A stretch of DNA of 64,000 bases from a virus: the IMG/VR virus record IMGVR_UViG_3300043409_001877, positions 62,001 to 126,000 of that record, one strand, 5' to 3'. Below are positions 3,536 to 50,810 of the stretch, piece by piece (within the stretch, counting starts at the first letter, position 1; every line of letters begins with the position of its first letter). The position numbers and the translations under genes were made by a program. The notes below the pieces were generated by a model. It was not told the DNA's origin and did no database searches. It saw only the letters and a program-made list of their open reading frames with translations.

Positions 3536-6370
3536 TTAAATATTGTTAAATTTTGCGCTATTTATTTTACCAGTATATGTTACAGGATTAAAAACCTCAA
3601 TAGCTTCAGATAGTTTTGAATTGAATGTTAATGCTGGAACTTCAGTATTACCGTATTTAACAGTTCTACCAAAATCAATTGGTAATGGTGTTGATTTTAA
3701 TTTAGCATTTAAATTCTTAATAAACCCTTGAAATGGATTTGAATCTTCTTGACCCACTTCAACAGTCTTTACGGTTTCGGCTATTGGTATTAATGTTTCA
3801 AATTTATCGCAATAATATCTTAAATTACTTGTTAGGTCTGGGTATTCATCTAAATAATTTATTTTCTGTTTACTAGACATAGAATAATATAACGGTCTAA
3901 CATCTTTAAATGATATTAACTCATACAAATAAGAGTTAATTATATTATCTGACACTAATTTATTTTTATTTTTAATTGAATTAGTAAAATCAGCTTGGGT
4001 ATATTCCGTTGCATATAAATTAATGTTTTTGGTCACCATATCAAAAAAAATAGCATCAGACGGTGCTTTTAATCTTAAGCCGTTAATTGCTAAATTACCT
4101 AGGTTGGTGTATGTGTTTGTTGCACCATTAATATCAGTAATATCACCTTTTTTGGTTATCTTATATAATTCGCTGGCTGTAACAAATTTAGCGTTGCTTG
4201 AATCCATTTTATCAAAAACTAATTCTTCAAGCAGCGCTAATTCAAAATCAGCTAATTTTTTTGAAAACCCATCCGCTAATCCATTAGTACCTAAACCACG
4301 ATAATACATACCAGAGTACGTAGCGTATAAATTATATTTGGTTATCATTTCACCCAATAATTTATCAGATTGTTTTTTATTTAAATAAGCGTCTAAATCA
4401 TTTTCACCTAACCCAAGAATTGTTGATAGTCCAGTTTTTTTTGTTGCTATATTTGTAATGGCTTTTGGGTTATTTAATACTGTAATTCTATTTAAAGCTA
4501 AATAAATTTCTTCAACAAAGGCAACCTCAAACCAATCTTTATTACCATCATCTATACCAGGATAAGTTAAAATATTCCTTTTAACTTCTTTTTTTTCCCC
4601 GTTATTGTTAAATGTTTCTACTTTGTTTTTAAAGTAATTAGGAAATGGTGTAAATATTTTTTGTTTTTTATCATTTTCAATATAATCAGTAAACTTAGCT
4701 TGTTTTTTAGTTCTAAGATTATCAACCTGTAATTGTTTTATAGCGTTATTAGCGGTTATTTCTAATAATATTAAAAATGTCTGCATGTTGTTAGCTACAA
4801 TTCTTAAAACATTATTCATGTTTGGTTGATAACCTAAATGCTCACCAAGATCACTAATTTGGTCATCAACAAAAGATTCTTCAATAGTTGATTGTAATTC
4901 ATTTAATCTAATTAAAACTAATGATATTACCCTATCATAATTATCAATAGTATATATTTTTTCATTTGCTGTATTTTTTATAGCAACATTTTTATCATTA
5001 TAATCTAAACCAAAAAATAATGTATGCTGTATTAAATCTTTATTACCCGTTGGTTTGTATTTATTATTATATAAAATATCAACATCTTTTACTACTTCAC
5101 TAAAAATTTCACTTGACGTGTTGTTTTTAGCACCACTAGGCAATTCAACAGTATCAATTGATTTTATTAATTCATTTAGTGTGCTATAGTTATTTATTAA
5201 TTCGATTGGTGTTGTATCTGTTAAAAATTCAACTCCAGGTTTTGGTTTATATTGGTTATTATCTTCTACTGTACAATTATTTTCAAACCAATTTCTAATA
5301 TTTCTATTATATTCCTCTACCTTATATTTTATTTCTGATACTTTATCATTTGATGCGCTAGAAGTTTTTGTTTGAATTGAAGCATCTTGCAAAACTGATG
5401 GTGCTATTTTTTCAACAGCACCAGCTAAATCAAACATTGTGGGGTTATTTAATATTTCGTAATGTTTATAAGCCTCTGGATCATTACCAACTAATTCTTT
5501 AATTTCTTTGTTTTGTTTTTCGTATAAACTATTTAATATTTTCTGACCAAGATATTCACCACTATCCAAAAGAAACATATATGGTGCAACATATGCGTAT
5601 ATCATTAAGAATGTGTTGAATATTGAAAACACTTCGCTTTGAAATTCAGCAGTTACATTATAATTACCAGTCTCTGGATCGAATCTAGTATTTGATTTTA
5701 ATAAAACTAAAGAGGTCTCCACCGCCTTACCATAATAACCTTTATAAGTTAATAAAAATCTTGGGTATGGGTACGTAAAAAATATGTTATATGGATTGTC
5801 GTTTTCATTACCTCTTTCAAATAACATTCTACCTTGAACATCAGTGAATTGAATTGTTACTATTGGTATGTGCCCAGCATTTATGGATATTCCAATATCT
5901 GTGATACCAAAAGTTTCTGGGTCTAATATATATTTAGAATTTTCTTTATCATTTGCATCATCACTAGTAAAAAAATCAGTCCATTCGGTTGTCATTTTAC
6001 CTTTTAAGTCAAACGTACCATCTTTTCTTCTATTCTTTAATGGATTTAAAAAATTAATAAAGATGGGTTGCGACTCAATTGTTTCAGACTTAACCCCGTC
6101 ACCACCAACAATAACTGATCTCTCACCTCTTTTAATAACTTTAAGAGATGAATAAATAACTAAATCTTCTTGTTTAACATATCTGTCAATAATCTGATTA
6201 TACTTATTAACAACTTTGTTTGGATCAATTACTAAAACACCTTGGGTATTTCTTTTTTCTGAACTAAATTTTTTAAGATAGGGATTAGTCGCTACAGTTG
6301 ATTTTGGTGGATTAGCTCTTTGAAATAATATTTTTTCTCCCGTTTCAAATATATTATTGTTACTCTCCAT
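3536..6370 (-). CDS. Large virion protein, probable baseplate protein
   Basis: This is a 944-residue protein whose start overlaps the end of the gp53-like wedge gene by 11 bases, a coupling typical of subunits of one complex. The region around residues 150-260 alternates beta-strand-like hydrophobic and aromatic stretches (for example IPIVTIQFTDVQGRMLF and FLLTYKGYYG), the pattern of beta-rich tail hub and wedge domains. The rest is Asn- and Lys-rich with long helical stretches. There is no enzymatic motif and no membrane segment. A hub or wedge component is likely from context, but I cannot assign a specific T4 gene number. Confidence 0.6.
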   Translation of the reverse strand: MESNNNIFETGEKILFQRANPPKSTVATNPYLKKFSSEKRNTQGVLVIDPNKVVNKYNQIIDRYVKQEDLVIYSSLKVIKRGERSVIVGGDGVKSETIESQPIFINFLNPLKNRRKDGTFDLKGKMTTEWTDFFTSDDANDKENSKYILDPETFGITDIGISINAGHIPIVTIQFTDVQGRMLFERGNENDNPYNIFFTYPYPRFLLTYKGYYGKAVETSLVLLKSNTRFDPETGNYNVTAEFQSEVFSIFNTFLMIYAYVAPYMFLLDSGEYLGQKILNSLYEKQNKEIKELVGNDPEAYKHYEILNNPTMFDLAGAVEKIAPSVLQDASIQTKTSSASNDKVSEIKYKVEEYNRNIRNWFENNCTVEDNNQYKPKPGVEFLTDTTPIELINNYSTLNELIKSIDTVELPSGAKNNTSSEIFSEVVKDVDILYNNKYKPTGNKDLIQHTLFFGLDYNDKNVAIKNTANEKIYTIDNYDRVISLVLIRLNELQSTIEESFVDDQISDLGEHLGYQPNMNNVLRIVANNMQTFLILLEITANNAIKQLQVDNLRTKKQAKFTDYIENDKKQKIFTPFPNYFKNKVETFNNNGEKKEVKRNILTYPGIDDGNKDWFEVAFVEEIYLALNRITVLNNPKAITNIATKKTGLSTILGLGENDLDAYLNKKQSDKLLGEMITKYNLYATYSGMYYRGLGTNGLADGFSKKLADFELALLEELVFDKMDSSNAKFVTASELYKITKKGDITDINGATNTYTNLGNLAINGLRLKAPSDAIFFDMVTKNINLYATEYTQADFTNSIKNKNKLVSDNIINSYLYELISFKDVRPLYYSMSSKQKINYLDEYPDLTSNLRYYCDKFETLIPIAETVKTVEVGQEDSNPFQGFIKNLNAKLKSTPLPIDFGRTVKYGNTEVPALTFNSKLSEAIEVFNPVTYTGKINSAKFNNI

Positions 6371-34008: not shown

Positions 34009-37000
34009 ATGAGTGAATATAAAATCCCTATTGAAGAAGTTGAGAAGTTTTTATTAGGTCATGATGATGAAAAGTATATCGTAAATATAGAATACGATAA
34101 CAAGACCAACTTAATTTATAAATTTAAACAGTTACCTGATGGTACAAAAACCACAGAAAAGGAACCACTTAAGGCGTTTCTATGGATGAAGAATTTAAAC
34201 ACTCTTAAAGAAAGGTTTAATTTCTATGACAACAATACCTTAAAAATTAAGTTAGCTAGAGAACAATATGGTATTGAAATCAAATCATTGGATCATGGTG
34301 ACCATGAAAGATTGGTAGATGGTTACAAATATTTACTAACTTGCGACCAGGGATATGATAGAATGTTAGAATTCTTTAGAAAGGGTGGTTTTTACAGGGG
34401 GATATACGATAAAACAAACGATATTAATACAAATTTTATAATTTTACCACCCGTTGAACAGTACTTGGTATCAACTGGTAAGAGATTATATAAAGGTTAC
34501 GAAGATTATAACGATATTGAAAAGTTTGTATTTGACTTAGAGACAACTGGTTTAGACCCTGAAACATCAAGGATATTCTTAATTGGTTGTAAGACAAATA
34601 AAGATTTTGAGGTATTATTTGACTGCGAAACTGAGGGTGAAAATGCTGATGCCACTGAAGTTGCAGCTATTGCTAAATTCTTCGCTGCAATAGATTATAT
34701 AAAACCCGCTATCATTGGTGGTTATAACAGCGCTAACTTTGACTGGAATTTTATTTTTAAACGTTGTGAAAAGTTAGGTGTGGATATTGAATCTCTGGCT
34801 AAAACATTAAAAGAAGATTCTAAAATTACAAACAAAGACCAGATAATTAAATTAGGTGGGGATGTTGAAAAGTTCACTCAAACAAATATGTTTGGTTACT
34901 CTGTTATTGATATTATACATGCAACACGTAAAGCCCAAGCCATTGATTCTAGTATGAAATCAGCGGCTTTAAAATATGTTTGTAAATATAATAAAATTGC
35001 AAAAAAGAATCGTGTTTATATTAAAGGAGATAAGATTGGTTCATATTGGAAAACCAATAAAGATTATTATTTTAATAATATAACTGGGTTATATTGCGAA
35101 AAAAAACCAAGTATTATTACTATGGATGTTATTACTAGGGATTATGTTAAAAACAATCCCGATATGGTCTTTATTTTTGGTGATAATGATGAAAGAGAGG
35201 GTATGGGTGGTCAAGCTAATGAAATGCGTGGTGAGCGCAATTCTATTGGAATACCAACCAAGAAAAAACCAAGTACAACAGATGATTCGTATTATACTGA
35301 TTCCGAATTTGAATTAAATAAAAAGAAAATTAATTATTCAGTTAATTTAATTTTAACTCAAATTAATAATGGTAAAACAATTGTATTACCAAGTAATGGT
35401 ATTGGCACTGGGTTAGCACAATTAAAAGAAAAGGCACCCAAAACATTTTCTTTCTTAGAGGCTACCATAAAAGCTATGTATGATTATGTTAATAAATTTG
35501 AAGTTGTTAATGGTGAGTACATTGTTAAACGGTATTTAATGGATGATTTATGGGAAACCGCTGAAATTGATAATGTATACAACCAATCATCTTTCATGTT
35601 AGCCAAGATGATTCCAACAACATACCAAAGGGTATCAACTATGGGTACGGCTGGTTTATGGAAAATGATTATGATTACATGGTCATATGAAAATAATTTA
35701 GCACTACCAACGCAAGACGATAAACGTGACTTTGTTGGTGGTTTATCTAGATTATTAAAAGTTGGGTTTTCAAAGAATCTAAGGAAGATGGACTTTAATT
35801 CACTATACCCAGCTATTCAATTAGCTCATGATATATTCCCAAGTGTTGATATTACTGGTGTAATGAAGTCATTATTAAAATACTTTCACTCCGAACGTTT
35901 TAAAGCTAAAGATTTAGCTAAACAATATAAAAAACAAGGTAATCATCAACTTGAATCACTATATAAACGTAAACAATTACCTTTAAAGATATTCATTAAC
36001 TCAATGTTTGGTGCATTGGGTGCCCCAAATGCTTTCCCTTGGGCTGAAATAAACATTAGTGAACAGATTACATGTACCGCAAGACAATATCTTAGGTTGA
36101 TGGTTAAATTCTTTATTAAGAAAGGGTATCAACCAACTGTATTAGATACGGATGGGGTTAACTTTATGGCACCTGATAACGGTGAGAGTGAATTTGTTTA
36201 CATAGGTAAGGGTAATAATGATGAGGTTGAAGCTGGTAAAGAATATCGTGGTGTCTATGCGGTTGTAGCAGAATTCAACGATCTTTATATGAAAGGTGAA
36301 ATGGGATTGGGTTTAGATGGTATGTGGCCCGCAACTATTAATTTAGCCAGAAAAAATTATGCGTTATTGGAAGATGATGGTAGCATTAGTTTAACTGGTA
36401 ATACTATTAAATCTAAAAAAATGCCAGTTTACATTGAAGAATTTTTAGATAAAGGTTTGGTTCTTTTATTAAATGATAAAGGTTACGAGTTTGTTCAATA
36501 TTATTATAAGTACGTTGATTTAATTCATAACAAAAAAATACCATTGGCTAAAATAGCCACAAAGGCTAGGGTTAAAAAAACAATATCTCAATATACTAAT
36601 AGAGGTATGAATAAGAACAACAAACCATTACCAAAACAAGCCCATATGGAATTGGCTATTAAACACAACTTACAAGTCAATCTAGGTGATACATTGTATT
36701 ATGTTAATGTTGGCACTAAAAAGTCTCATGGTGACGTTAAAGAAGATAAAAACGGTAAGATATATGGTGAATTAATTGAAGCTTCTATTATTGAATCAGC
36801 ACCAGATACATTAGGGGAGTACAATATTGAAAAATATTTATCAATGTTTAACTCAAGGATTAAAGGTTTACTGGTTCTTTTTGACCTTGAGGTTAGAAAT
36901 AAAATATTAATAAACAAACCCGAAGATAAAAAAAGTTGGATGATGTCAGAACTAGAATTAGTTAATAATCAACCAAGTAAAGAGGGTGATCAAGATACTT

Positions 37001-37131
37001 TAGATGAATTATTTACACCATCTGACATGGAAATTGAATTTTGGGATAAATTAGAGTACCAACCAGATTTTTGGTTCCAAGAAAACATACTATTTACATT
37101 ACCTGGATTAGGAAAAGAAGAGTTAGTTTAA
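34009..37131 (+). CDS. gp43: Family B DNA polymerase (T4 gp43-like) with inserted macro-like domain
   Basis: This is a 1040-residue replicative polymerase with 3'-5' exonuclease. Exo I is FDLETTG (Asp176, Glu178); Exo II is NSANFD (Asn240-Asp245); Exo III is YLMDD (Tyr509, Asp513). Motif A is DFNSLYP (Asp595), motif B is K653 to NSMFG (664-668), and motif C is LDTDG (Asp713, Asp715; Gly replaces the usual Ser). Between Exo II and Exo III, residues about 366-492 form an extra domain with ITRDYV, VFIFGDNDE, GMGGQA, MRGERNSIGIPTKKKP and SNGIGTGLAQL, which occurs elsewhere as a separate small phage protein. The enzyme copies the phage genome; the insertion's role is unknown. Confidence 0.93.
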   Translation: MSEYKIPIEEVEKFLLGHDDEKYIVNIEYDNKTNLIYKFKQLPDGTKTTEKEPLKAFLWMKNLNTLKERFNFYDNNTLKIKLAREQYGIEIKSLDHGDHERLVDGYKYLLTCDQGYDRMLEFFRKGGFYRGIYDKTNDINTNFIILPPVEQYLVSTGKRLYKGYEDYNDIEKFVFDLETTGLDPETSRIFLIGCKTNKDFEVLFDCETEGENADATEVAAIAKFFAAIDYIKPAIIGGYNSANFDWNFIFKRCEKLGVDIESLAKTLKEDSKITNKDQIIKLGGDVEKFTQTNMFGYSVIDIIHATRKAQAIDSSMKSAALKYVCKYNKIAKKNRVYIKGDKIGSYWKTNKDYYFNNITGLYCEKKPSIITMDVITRDYVKNNPDMVFIFGDNDEREGMGGQANEMRGERNSIGIPTKKKPSTTDDSYYTDSEFELNKKKINYSVNLILTQINNGKTIVLPSNGIGTGLAQLKEKAPKTFSFLEATIKAMYDYVNKFEVVNGEYIVKRYLMDDLWETAEIDNVYNQSSFMLAKMIPTTYQRVSTMGTAGLWKMIMITWSYENNLALPTQDDKRDFVGGLSRLLKVGFSKNLRKMDFNSLYPAIQLAHDIFPSVDITGVMKSLLKYFHSERFKAKDLAKQYKKQGNHQLESLYKRKQLPLKIFINSMFGALGAPNAFPWAEINISEQITCTARQYLRLMVKFFIKKGYQPTVLDTDGVNFMAPDNGESEFVYIGKGNNDEVEAGKEYRGVYAVVAEFNDLYMKGEMGLGLDGMWPATINLARKNYALLEDDGSISLTGNTIKSKKMPVYIEEFLDKGLVLLLNDKGYEFVQYYYKYVDLIHNKKIPLAKIATKARVKKTISQYTNRGMNKNNKPLPKQAHMELAIKHNLQVNLGDTLYYVNVGTKKSHGDVKEDKNGKIYGELIEASIIESAPDTLGEYNIEKYLSMFNSRIKGLLVLFDLEVRNKILINKPEDKKSWMMSELELVNNQPSKEGDQDTLDELFTPSDMEIEFWDKLEYQPDFWFQENILFTLPGLGKEELV

Positions 37132-48208: not shown

Positions 48209-48901
48209 ATGAACATATTTAAAACAAATTATAAAGGGGTTTTAGTAGAATTACCAAAATCAATTCACGAACAAAGAACAGTGTCTAAGGTTGAAACCAT
48301 TAAAGACAGAATATTGATGGGTGACTACGAAAGAGTTGAAAGCGATTTTGCTATTAAGTATTACGATAATAATGACGTTGTTTTAGAGTTAGGTGGTTGT
48401 TTAGGTATTGTGTCATGTATAATGGCTAAAATTGTTAAAAATTTAGTAACTGTCGAACCAAACACTAATTTAAATGATATTATTAACAATCATAAAAAAA
48501 TAAACAACGTTGATTTTATATTAGAAAACACAATTGTTAGTAATAACAACACTGATATTGTAGAATTTCATGTGAACCCTTTTGTTTTAGGTTCTGGTTT
48601 ATATTCTAAAAGTAGTAATATTATTAAAACAAAAACAACAACTATTAGCGATCTTGAGAAAAAACATAATTTAAAATTCAATACACTCCATTGCGATATT
48701 GAGGGTTTTGAGTTTGATTTCTTAAAGAATAATATAAATGAAATAAAAACAAAATTTAATAAGATTATAATTGAAACTCATTACTGGATGAACCTTGCTA
48801 ATGGGTATGATGTTTTAGCGTTTTTAAACGGTAATGGTTATGAATTAATTAATCAACATCAAGGAATATTTTTTTTAAAACTAAAACATAATAATGGATA
48901 A
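48209..48901 (+). CDS. FkbM-type SAM-dependent methyltransferase
   Basis: This is a 230-residue protein: VVLELGGCLGIVSCIMAKIV (about 55-75) is the SAM-binding glycine loop, LVTVEPNTNL the acidic strand end, and FNTLHCDIEGFEFDFLKNNI (about 155-175) the FkbM-type motif with DIEGFE. FkbM proteins O-methylate sugars, among other targets. In this operon it probably methylates a sugar of the glycan. It starts 1 base after the NeuB gene and overlaps the next gene by 8 bases. Confidence 0.85.
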   Translation: MNIFKTNYKGVLVELPKSIHEQRTVSKVETIKDRILMGDYERVESDFAIKYYDNNDVVLELGGCLGIVSCIMAKIVKNLVTVEPNTNLNDIINNHKKINNVDFILENTIVSNNNTDIVEFHVNPFVLGSGLYSKSSNIIKTKTTTISDLEKKHNLKFNTLHCDIEGFEFDFLKNNINEIKTKFNKIIIETHYWMNLANGYDVLAFLNGNGYELINQHQGIFFLKLKHNNG

Positions 48902-50810
48902 ACATAAAGACTTTTGGGAAAAATGTGATGAAACGTTTTCACATATTGATATATCTGGTCACTTAGGGGATATTAAACAATTACAACAATCATGGGAAAA
49001 TAATTTTGCTAATAAATATGATTTTACCAATAAAACTGTAATTGATTATGGTATTGGCGGTGGGTTATTTGGTAAATACCTTTTTGATAAAAAGAAAATA
49101 AAAAAGTATATTGGATTTGATATAGCACAAAGACAACTTAAACATGCCGCTATAAATTTAAAAGGTTATAAAAAAGAACTTTTTGATTCTAATGTAAAAT
49201 TAAATTTTAACGATTTAAATGCTGATATTTTTATTTGCCAAGCTGTTATACAACACTTCCCTAATGAAAAGTATATGATTAATTTTTTAAATGAACTTAA
49301 CGATTCTAATATTAACGAAATAATGTTACAAATACGTTATAGCAATAAAACAACGTTTAGTAATGATTATGATACAAGAGAAGGCGTTAGATTATCCTGT
49401 CAAACCAATTCAGATTATATATTAAAACATTTAAAAAACTATAAACTAGTAACTAATAAAAAATTAACCAACAAATCAAATTACGAATTTTTATTCTTTG
49501 AAAAAAAAAATAAAAAAATTTACGTAGACATTGATAACACGATTGCTGAAACCAATGGTATGGATTATGAAAATTCAAAACCAATAATGGATAGGATTAA
49601 TAAAATTAACAACCTTCATGATGATGGTAATACCATTGTTTACTGGACGGCAAGAGGTTCTGTATCTGGTATTGATTATTCAGAATTAACTAAAAAACAA
49701 TTTGAAGAATGGGGTGTTAAATATCACGATTTAAAATTTGGTAAACCAGCTTATGATTTATTTATTGATGATAAAAATATACATAGTGATACATTTTTTA
49801 AATCGGTTGATACAATTAATCACGATTCTAATTTATTTATAACATGCCCTTCGGTTAAAGTACCACATGGTGGTATTAGAGTCATATTAGAATGGGCTAA
49901 TAGATTAAGTAAATGGCATAACGTAACTTTATATATTGCAGATGGTGAAACTAACTGTAAATGGTTTGAAATAGATCCTATTGTAAAAATAGAGATTAAT
50001 AAAAATAACATTGTTGATTATAATTGCGTAATTATTACAAGCCCACATTCAATACACCTGCAAGATCTAATAACATCAAATCAAAAGTGTTTTATTTTTA
50101 TGCAAATGGCTGAACATTTATTCAACCCTAATGATACTGAATGGCTTAAAAAATGCACAGATTTTTACACATCAAAACACCCTTTGTTTTCAATATCTCA
50201 ATGGAATATTGATATGTTGAAAAATGAATTTAAACGTAGTGGTGAAATTTATTATATTGGGAATGGTGTTAATTTAGATGATTTTACTATAAGTGAAACT
50301 CCTAAAAAAGATAATATTATATTAATTGAAGGTTGGGAGCCAACTAACCCAAGTAAAGATATAGATAATTTAGCTCCAAGAGTAGCAGCTAAACTTAAAA
50401 AAATGAAATATAAAATTTTAGCATATTCTAATAGACCATTAAAAACTTTTGCTGAAATACCTGATGAATACTATCATAACCCTGATTTAAAAACAATGAA
50501 TGATTTATATGATAGAGCCACAATATTAGTTAAGGCTACTAAATACGATGCCAGAAGTTGTGCACCAATGGAGGCTATGACTAAAGGTACACCAACTGTT
50601 AGAGCTATAAATTATGGTGACGATGATTTAATTAATGATTTTAATTGCGTTAAAGTACTTTATAATGAACGACAATTATATGAGGGTATTATTAATTTAT
50701 TAAAAGATAAAGATAAATATGAATACATGTCTTCACATTGTTTAAATTATGTTAAAACGATTACTTGGGATTTTTGGATGGGTGAAGTTAATAAAATAAT
50801 AAGCAATTAA
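48894..50810 (+). CDS. Three-domain enzyme: methyltransferase, HAD phosphatase, GT4-like glycosyltransferase
   Basis: This is a 638-residue protein. Part 1 (about 1-190): SAM methyltransferase with TVIDYGIGGGLFGKYLF and YIGFDIAQRQL. Part 2 (about 203-305): HAD-like phosphatase with IYVDIDNTIAET (DxDxT), IVYWTARGS, and KPAYDLFIDDKN, as in capsule biosynthesis HAD proteins. Part 3 (about 310-638): GT-B type glycosyltransferase with HGGIRVILEWANRL, YYIGNGVNLDDF, IILIEGWEPTNPSK and ARSCAPMEAMTKGTPTVRA (EX7E-like acceptor region). The fusion would couple modification and transfer of one sugar. It overlaps the FkbM gene by 8 bases. A small AT-rich gap of 29 bases follows. Confidence 0.8.
   Translation: MDKHKDFWEKCDETFSHIDISGHLGDIKQLQQSWENNFANKYDFTNKTVIDYGIGGGLFGKYLFDKKKIKKYIGFDIAQRQLKHAAINLKGYKKELFDSNVKLNFNDLNADIFICQAVIQHFPNEKYMINFLNELNDSNINEIMLQIRYSNKTTFSNDYDTREGVRLSCQTNSDYILKHLKNYKLVTNKKLTNKSNYEFLFFEKKNKKIYVDIDNTIAETNGMDYENSKPIMDRINKINNLHDDGNTIVYWTARGSVSGIDYSELTKKQFEEWGVKYHDLKFGKPAYDLFIDDKNIHSDTFFKSVDTINHDSNLFITCPSVKVPHGGIRVILEWANRLSKWHNVTLYIADGETNCKWFEIDPIVKIEINKNNIVDYNCVIITSPHSIHLQDLITSNQKCFIFMQMAEHLFNPNDTEWLKKCTDFYTSKHPLFSISQWNIDMLKNEFKRSGEIYYIGNGVNLDDFTISETPKKDNIILIEGWEPTNPSKDIDNLAPRVAAKLKKMKYKILAYSNRPLKTFAEIPDEYYHNPDLKTMNDLYDRATILVKATKYDARSCAPMEAMTKGTPTVRAINYGDDDLINDFNCVKVLYNERQLYEGIINLLKDKDKYEYMSSHCLNYVKTITWDFWMGEVNKIISN

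What the first reader, a model, noticed from the sequence alone, without database searches (positions are those of the whole stretch)
34009..37131. Macro-like domain inserted between Exo II and Exo III of a family B DNA polymerase
Seen: polymerase and exonuclease motifs are all in place, but about 127 residues (366-492) with ITRDYV, FGDNDE, GMGGQA, IPTKKKP and SNGIGTG lie between Exo II (Asp245) and Exo III (Tyr509/Asp513). Known: the same kind of domain exists as a free-standing phage/bacterial protein of unknown function (I recall a DUF7831-like, macro-domain-related family, from memory). Inference: the insertion is in a surface loop of the exonuclease domain and might bind ADP-ribose or NAD, linking replication to NAD-based host defence.
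Basis: partly seen in the sequence, partly recalled or inferred. Interest (0 to 1): 0.82.

Follow-up and report, generated by a model that had tools for sequence, protein, structure and literature searches.

The report
Phage DNA polymerase with DUF7831 insert
A group of large phages carries a replicative DNA polymerase into which a compact, uncharacterised domain called DUF7831 was inserted once during evolution; elsewhere that domain keeps company with enzymes of NAD and ADP-ribose chemistry, so it may help replication survive NAD-based bacterial defences, though this is untested.

Summary
The 1040-aa ORF at 34009-37131 is a family B DNA polymerase with all exonuclease and polymerase motifs. 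Residues 371-485 match Pfam DUF7831 (E=1.3e-43). It is a true insertion: 38 of 52 aligned related phage polymerases have 22-30 residues where 14 have about 140. On a tree built without the insert the 14 form one group (SH-aLRT 100). The domain alone is predicted as a compact fold (pLDDT 96.5). It is no intein and not part of the exonuclease fold. No such fusion appeared in 50,697 phage records.

"Macro-like" is not supported by profile or fold comparison, though the motif order is reminiscent. The NAD link is supported by family context: DUF7831 lies inside or beside NADAR domains, next to SLOG domains and AlkB, beside NMNAT-Nudix plus NAMPT genes, and before PIF1/Dda-like helicases. The window's own record has no NADAR, Macro or NAPRTase.

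Most likely a module reading or removing NAD-derived adducts at the fork (mechanism about 0.35). Against it: the insert mostly evolves faster than the polymerase and its motif residues are lost in some lineages, leaving a structural or recognition-escape role open.

The parts
34009..37131 (+). family B DNA polymerase with inserted DUF7831 domain, 1040 aa
   Evidence: ORF; Pfam DNA_pol_B and DNA_pol_B_exo1; phrog_262; AF2 model matches archaeal PolB structures, E down to 7e-30
34531..34545 (+). Exo I, D176/E178
   Evidence: invariant in 52 relatives
34723..34746 (+). Exo II, YNSANFDW with D245
   Evidence: invariant F244 D245 W246
35104..35484 (+). inserted DUF7831 module, residues 366-492
   Evidence: PF25176 at 371-485, E=1.3e-43; absent in 38 related polymerases; AF2 of the module alone pLDDT 96.5
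35176..35187 (+). FGDN motif (390-393)
   Evidence: each residue in 103-108 of 111 family members
35200..35217 (+). GxGGQA motif (398-403)
   Evidence: each conserved residue in 102-109 of 111
35248..35262 (+). GIPTK motif (414-418)
   Evidence: T417 in 110, G414 in 109, K418 in 102 of 111
35398..35412 (+). GIGTG motif (464-468)
   Evidence: G466 in 111 of 111, T467 in 101, G468 in 106
35533..35547 (+). Exo III, YLMDD with Y509/D513
   Evidence: Y509, L510 and D513 invariant in 52 relatives
35791..35811 (+). polymerase motif A, DFNSLYP (D595)
35971..36012 (+). polymerase motif B, KQLPLKIFINSMFG
36145..36153 (+). polymerase motif C, DTD (713-715)
   Evidence: invariant

Best explanation
A single in-frame domain insertion in the ancestor of one clade of large phages placed a DUF7831 module in the loop before the Exo III helix of a working PolB. 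The module is a compact domain that most likely binds, and probably hydrolyses, an NAD-derived or ADP-ribose-like group. Tethered to the replicase it would clear or sense ADP-ribosyl-type adducts (such as those made by DarT-type defences) on DNA or nucleotides at the fork. Shown: the insertion, conserved motifs, purifying selection, family context. Predicted or inferred from a tree: the fold, the single gain. Inferred only: ligand, catalysis, target.
For: Insertion and single origin (module tree). All polymerase and exonuclease residues kept. The module folds on its own and keeps the same elements inside the polymerase model. Motif residues are kept in most inserted copies, and dN/dS is 0.03-0.29. 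Family context: NADAR interrupted by DUF7831 (L070; halves rejoined match NADAR, E=1.5e-5); AlkB-DUF7831-NADAR (L063); cpYpsA SLOG-DUF7831 (L049); DUF7831 then PIF1/AAA_30 helicase (L394, L412); genes beside NMNAT-Nudix and NAMPT (L036, L044, L057, L083); SLOG genes near it in 16 of 116 free-standing phage or bacterial loci. [quoted passage not shown] PolB mutations let T-even phages escape DarTG, which ADP-ribosylates phage DNA (PMC11348598; also PMC11481870).
Against: No ligand or activity is known for any DUF7831 protein that I could find (no held paper names it). In lineages L112-L115 and L122-L125 the GDN, GGQA and GTG residues are changed while the domain is kept. The insert mostly evolves faster than the polymerase (L112 against L118: 47% and 84% identity). 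The NAMPT neighbourhood did not widen in a second scan: it recovered the same four contigs, and only one of 80 NAMPT loci, one of those same contigs, has DUF7831. The window's record lacks NADAR, Macro and NAPRTase.
Confidence: 0.35

Rival explanations
1. Structural or recognition-escape insertion: the module was recruited as a stable surface domain that changes partner binding, processivity, or recognition of the polymerase by host defences that sense phage polymerases; the conserved pocket is dispensable.
For: Motif residues degenerate in some lineages while the domain stays; fast evolution of the insert; host systems such as Borvo and AbiQ are linked to phage DNA polymerases (PMC11348598).
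Against: Most inserted copies keep the family motifs; R407, E409, N411 and G466 are kept in all 111 family members. A mere spacer would not need them, though they may be structural.
Confidence: 0.3
2. Allosteric sensor: the module binds free NAD or ADP-ribose derivatives and switches polymerase or proofreading activity according to infection or defence state, without hydrolysis.
For: Insertion in the loop that leads into the Exo III helix; family context with SLOG domains, proposed to sense or process NAD/ADPr derivatives (PMC9503650).
Against: No evidence of coupling; the exonuclease and polymerase motifs do not differ between forms with and without the insert.
Confidence: 0.17
3. Nucleotide-pool sanitising or NAD-salvage enzyme: the domain acts on free nucleotides (for example ADP-ribose, its phosphates, or damaged dNTPs) and is tethered to the polymerase only for supply.
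For: Neighbouring NMNAT-Nudix, NAMPT, QPRTase and nucleotidyltransferase genes of free-standing copies.
Against: No NAPRTase-family salvage gene in the window's record; presence with helicase and AlkB domains in other proteins points to DNA.
Confidence: 0.13
4. Intein, homing element or integral exonuclease subdomain.
For: Inteins and introns do occur in phage genes, including PolB introns in crAss-like phages (PMC7886860).
Against: No intein or endonuclease domain in Pfam, no splice-junction residues, a precise match to a stand-alone family, absence from 38 relatives.
Confidence: 0.01

Closest known systems
DUF7831 (PF25176; phrog_2072)
   Same: Full-length match, all family motifs
   Different: Normally free-standing (about 130 aa) or part of giant polyvalent proteins; here it sits inside a replicative polymerase
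Family B DNA polymerases of large phages without the insert (IMG/VR relatives L004-L008, L133-L187)
   Same: Same polymerase and exonuclease motifs, about 50% identity
   Different: They lack the insertion
NADAR-DUF7831 and AlkB-DUF7831-NADAR polyvalent proteins (L070, L063)
   Same: DUF7831 inserted into or beside another enzymatic domain
   Different: No polymerase; long multidomain proteins
Macro domains (PF01661), DarG antitoxin
   Same: Loose motif order (strand-N, GG-rich loop, TK/TV strand, P-x-GxGTG loop), judged by eye
   Different: No profile or fold match; fewer strands
Phage polymerase mutations that escape DarTG
   Same: Polymerase as the site of adaptation to DNA ADP-ribosylation (PMC11348598, PMC11481870)
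   Different: Point mutations, not an added domain
PolEpsilonN P-domain insertion in the palm (PMC7544198)
   Same: Function-adding domain inserted in a PolB
   Different: Different domain, different site, processivity role

Membership tests
DUF7831 (PF25176) | Pfam gathering score over the whole domain | tested here: met
   148 bits against 27, profile positions 3-117 of 118
DUF7831 (PF25176) | Near-invariant residues FGDN, GxGGQA, RxExN, TK, GxGTG, AP | tested here: met
   Window copy matches the family majority at nearly all listed positions; P410 and A412 are R and S here
Family B DNA polymerase with 3'-5' exonuclease | Exo I-III and Pol A, B, C motifs | tested here: met
   fold match to archaeal PolBs
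Macro domain (PF01661) | Profile match | tested here: not met
   No Pfam Macro match; hhalign probability 1.7 and 3.2%
Macro domain (PF01661) | Six-stranded alpha/beta core with ADPr-binding loops (PMC9503650) | tested here: not met
   Four strands of 3 or more residues predicted; no PDB fold match at E<=0.001; Tk.4 of phage 133 only TM 0.52 at E=1.7
Macro domain (PF01661) | ADP-ribose binding or hydrolysis | not testable with these tools
   Needs biochemistry
Intein | Hint domain, splice-junction residues | tested here: not met
   No such Pfam match; the C-terminal boundary reads YDYVNKFEVV, with no His-Asn followed by Cys/Ser/Thr
Phage NAD+ reconstitution (NAMPT/NMNAT type) | NAMPT/NAPRTase gene in the same phage | tested here: not met
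   No NAPRTase match in the 141 kb record; the record may be incomplete

The most novel reading that the evidence does not exclude
A replicative DNA polymerase with a built-in eraser (or reader) of ADP-ribosylated DNA: a replisome-integrated counter-defence against DarT-type or other NAD-based immunity, with DUF7831 as a new ADP-ribose-processing fold.
Probability: 0.2. Interest if true: 0.87.

Novelty: new variant of a known kind. Interest (0 to 1): 0.6.

Why it matters
It gives an uncharacterised, widespread domain a physical address inside the replisome. If DUF7831 processes ADP-ribosyl adducts, phages have hard-wired repair of host-inflicted DNA damage into the polymerase itself, and known links between phage polymerase mutations and escape from DarTG become mechanistically testable. 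Even if the role is structural, natural pairs with and without the insert, and with intact or degenerate motif residues, make a ready-made experiment.

Tried and rejected
Macrodomain membership: profile comparison and fold searches did not support it; the best sequence-profile PDB matches were chance-level stretches of triosephosphate isomerase (E=0.011). A megaphage hit that seemed to run on into Exo III (LR745206.1) was a separate 405-aa protein, not a polymerase. A second DUF7831 scan and a reciprocal NAMPT scan, meant to strengthen the NAD-salvage neighbourhood, recovered the same four contigs. NADAR, Macro and NAPRTase searches of the window's record were negative. Among 40 related phage contigs DUF7831 was found once in each of the 14 with the insert and in none of the 26 without, so no free-standing donor gene was seen there. 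PADLOC gave nothing for the domain. Intein and integral-exonuclease readings rejected.

Full report
Observation. The ORF 34009-37131 encodes 1040 aa. Pfam finds DUF7831 at 371-485 (E=1.3e-43), DNA_pol_B at 616-916 and DNA_pol_B_exo1; PHROGs give DNA polymerase and phrog_2072 for the insert.

Insertion test. From IMG/VR I fetched related polymerases. In an alignment of 52, 14 hold 140-141 residues and 38 hold 22-30 (all but one 22-25) between the positions of window residues 362 and 501. A tree built without that stretch puts the 14 on one side of a branch with SH-aLRT 100, one change in all. The deep outlier L134 lacks it, as do the archaeal PolBs, whose best match resumes after the insert, so gain is the simpler reading. 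A second DUF7831 scan gave six further contigs with the same arrangement. The DUF7831 copies from polymerases also fall on one side of a branch in the module tree (support 86, few columns). In 40 contigs searched whole, each of 14 with the insert has exactly one DUF7831 and none of 26 without it has any, so no free-standing copy was seen in these relatives. No record among 50,697 phages covers 80% of the protein; DUF7831 and PolB matches are separate there.

Structure. The module alone is predicted with mean pLDDT 96.5 and pTM 0.89: four strands and helices in the order strand-helix-strand-helix-strand-helix-strand-helices. The full model matches archaeal PolBs. Exo and Pol active-site residues are invariant in forms with and without the insert.

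Is it a macrodomain? The order FGDN, GxGGQA, GIPTK, GIGTG recalls macro loops (NAAN, GGGV, HTVGP, STGIYG, visible in the macro sequences), but profile-profile comparison gave probability 1.7% and 3.2% (the macro alignments were small), PDB fold search found nothing at E<=0.001 and no macrodomain in the 50 best shown, and the viral library gave DUF7831 proteins (including giant viruses of eukaryotes) but macro proteins only at E above 1. I do not file it as a macrodomain; a very remote kinship is not excluded.

Family context. DUF7831 occurs (a) in these polymerases, (b) free-standing in phages and bacteria, (c) in proteins of 700-3,800 aa. In L070 it interrupts a NADAR domain: the flanks rejoined match NADAR at E=1.5e-5 (below Pfam's curated cut-off). 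L063 reads AlkB-like 2OG-Fe(II) oxygenase, DUF7831, NADAR (NADAR just below its cut-off). L049 has cpYpsA SLOG before it. L394 and L412 have PIF1/AAA_30 helicase domains after it. Free-standing genes lie beside an NMNAT-Nudix and a NAMPT in L036, L044, L057 and L083, and beside a QPRTase, a nucleotidyltransferase and a SLOG/DprA-like gene in L050. SLOG-like genes are near it in 7 of 58 phage and 9 of 58 bacterial loci and in none of 80 polymerase loci; the bacterial set includes many related acidobacterial elements. These counts are small and partly non-independent. The NAMPT link rests on four contigs. The nearest non-polymerase copy in the module tree is L057, one of the four, though at a long distance.

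Selection. dN/dS of the insert is 0.03-0.29, so it is under purifying selection, but in most pairs it changes faster than the rest (window against L003: 68% and 79% identity; L112 against L118: 47% and 84%). In L112-L115 and L122-L125 the GDN, GGQA and GTG residues are altered; R407, E409, N411 and G466 are kept throughout. The two groups are separate in the tree but the fork is poorly resolved.

Mechanism. Literature: DarT ADP-ribosylates DNA and blocks phage replication; NADARs reverse guanine ADP-ribosylation; PolB mutations of T-even phages escape DarTG (PMC11481870, PMC11125620, PMC11348598). Putting this with the context, I think the module most likely reads or removes NAD-derived adducts at the fork (0.35). 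The alternatives, a structural or recognition-escape domain, a sensor, or a nucleotide-pool enzyme, are not excluded, and loss of motif residues in some lineages argues for caution. The window's own record lacks NADAR, Macro and NAPRTase.

Novelty. I found no held paper naming DUF7831, and the passages found in papers on phage PolB diversity and phage biology (PMC7544198, PMC11348598, PMC7824862) did not describe this fusion; subscription papers were not searched. [quoted passage not shown]

Noticed in passing
L036, L044, L057, L083 (DUF7831 near locus base 6000): Free-standing DUF7831 genes lie beside an NMNAT-Nudix fusion and a NAMPT gene, resembling a phage NAD-salvage cassette.
   Followed up: yes
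L070:5986-6345 and flanks: DUF7831 splits a NADAR domain in a giant polyvalent protein; rejoined halves match NADAR at 1.5e-5.
   Followed up: yes
L394 and L412: DUF7831 precedes a PIF1/AAA_30-type helicase in one long ORF.
   Followed up: partly
L112-L115, L122-L125: Inserted copies have lost the GDN, GGQA and GTG residues while the domain is retained.
   Followed up: partly
L009:5001-8275 (same contig as L130): The polymerase ORF is broken by a frameshift into 773 and 334 aa, perhaps an assembly error; the contig also encodes a NADAR (L264).
   Followed up: partly
L416:4837-7740: Protein with a NADAR-like segment, a DUF4326-like segment, DUF7831 and a SLOG-like segment in tandem, by eye and by similarity to the L063 NADAR; Pfam confirmed only DUF7831.
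   Followed up: partly
window 48894-50810: Protein of 638 aa with a segment matching the phage phosphoheptose isomerase family (phrog_1238).
   Followed up: no
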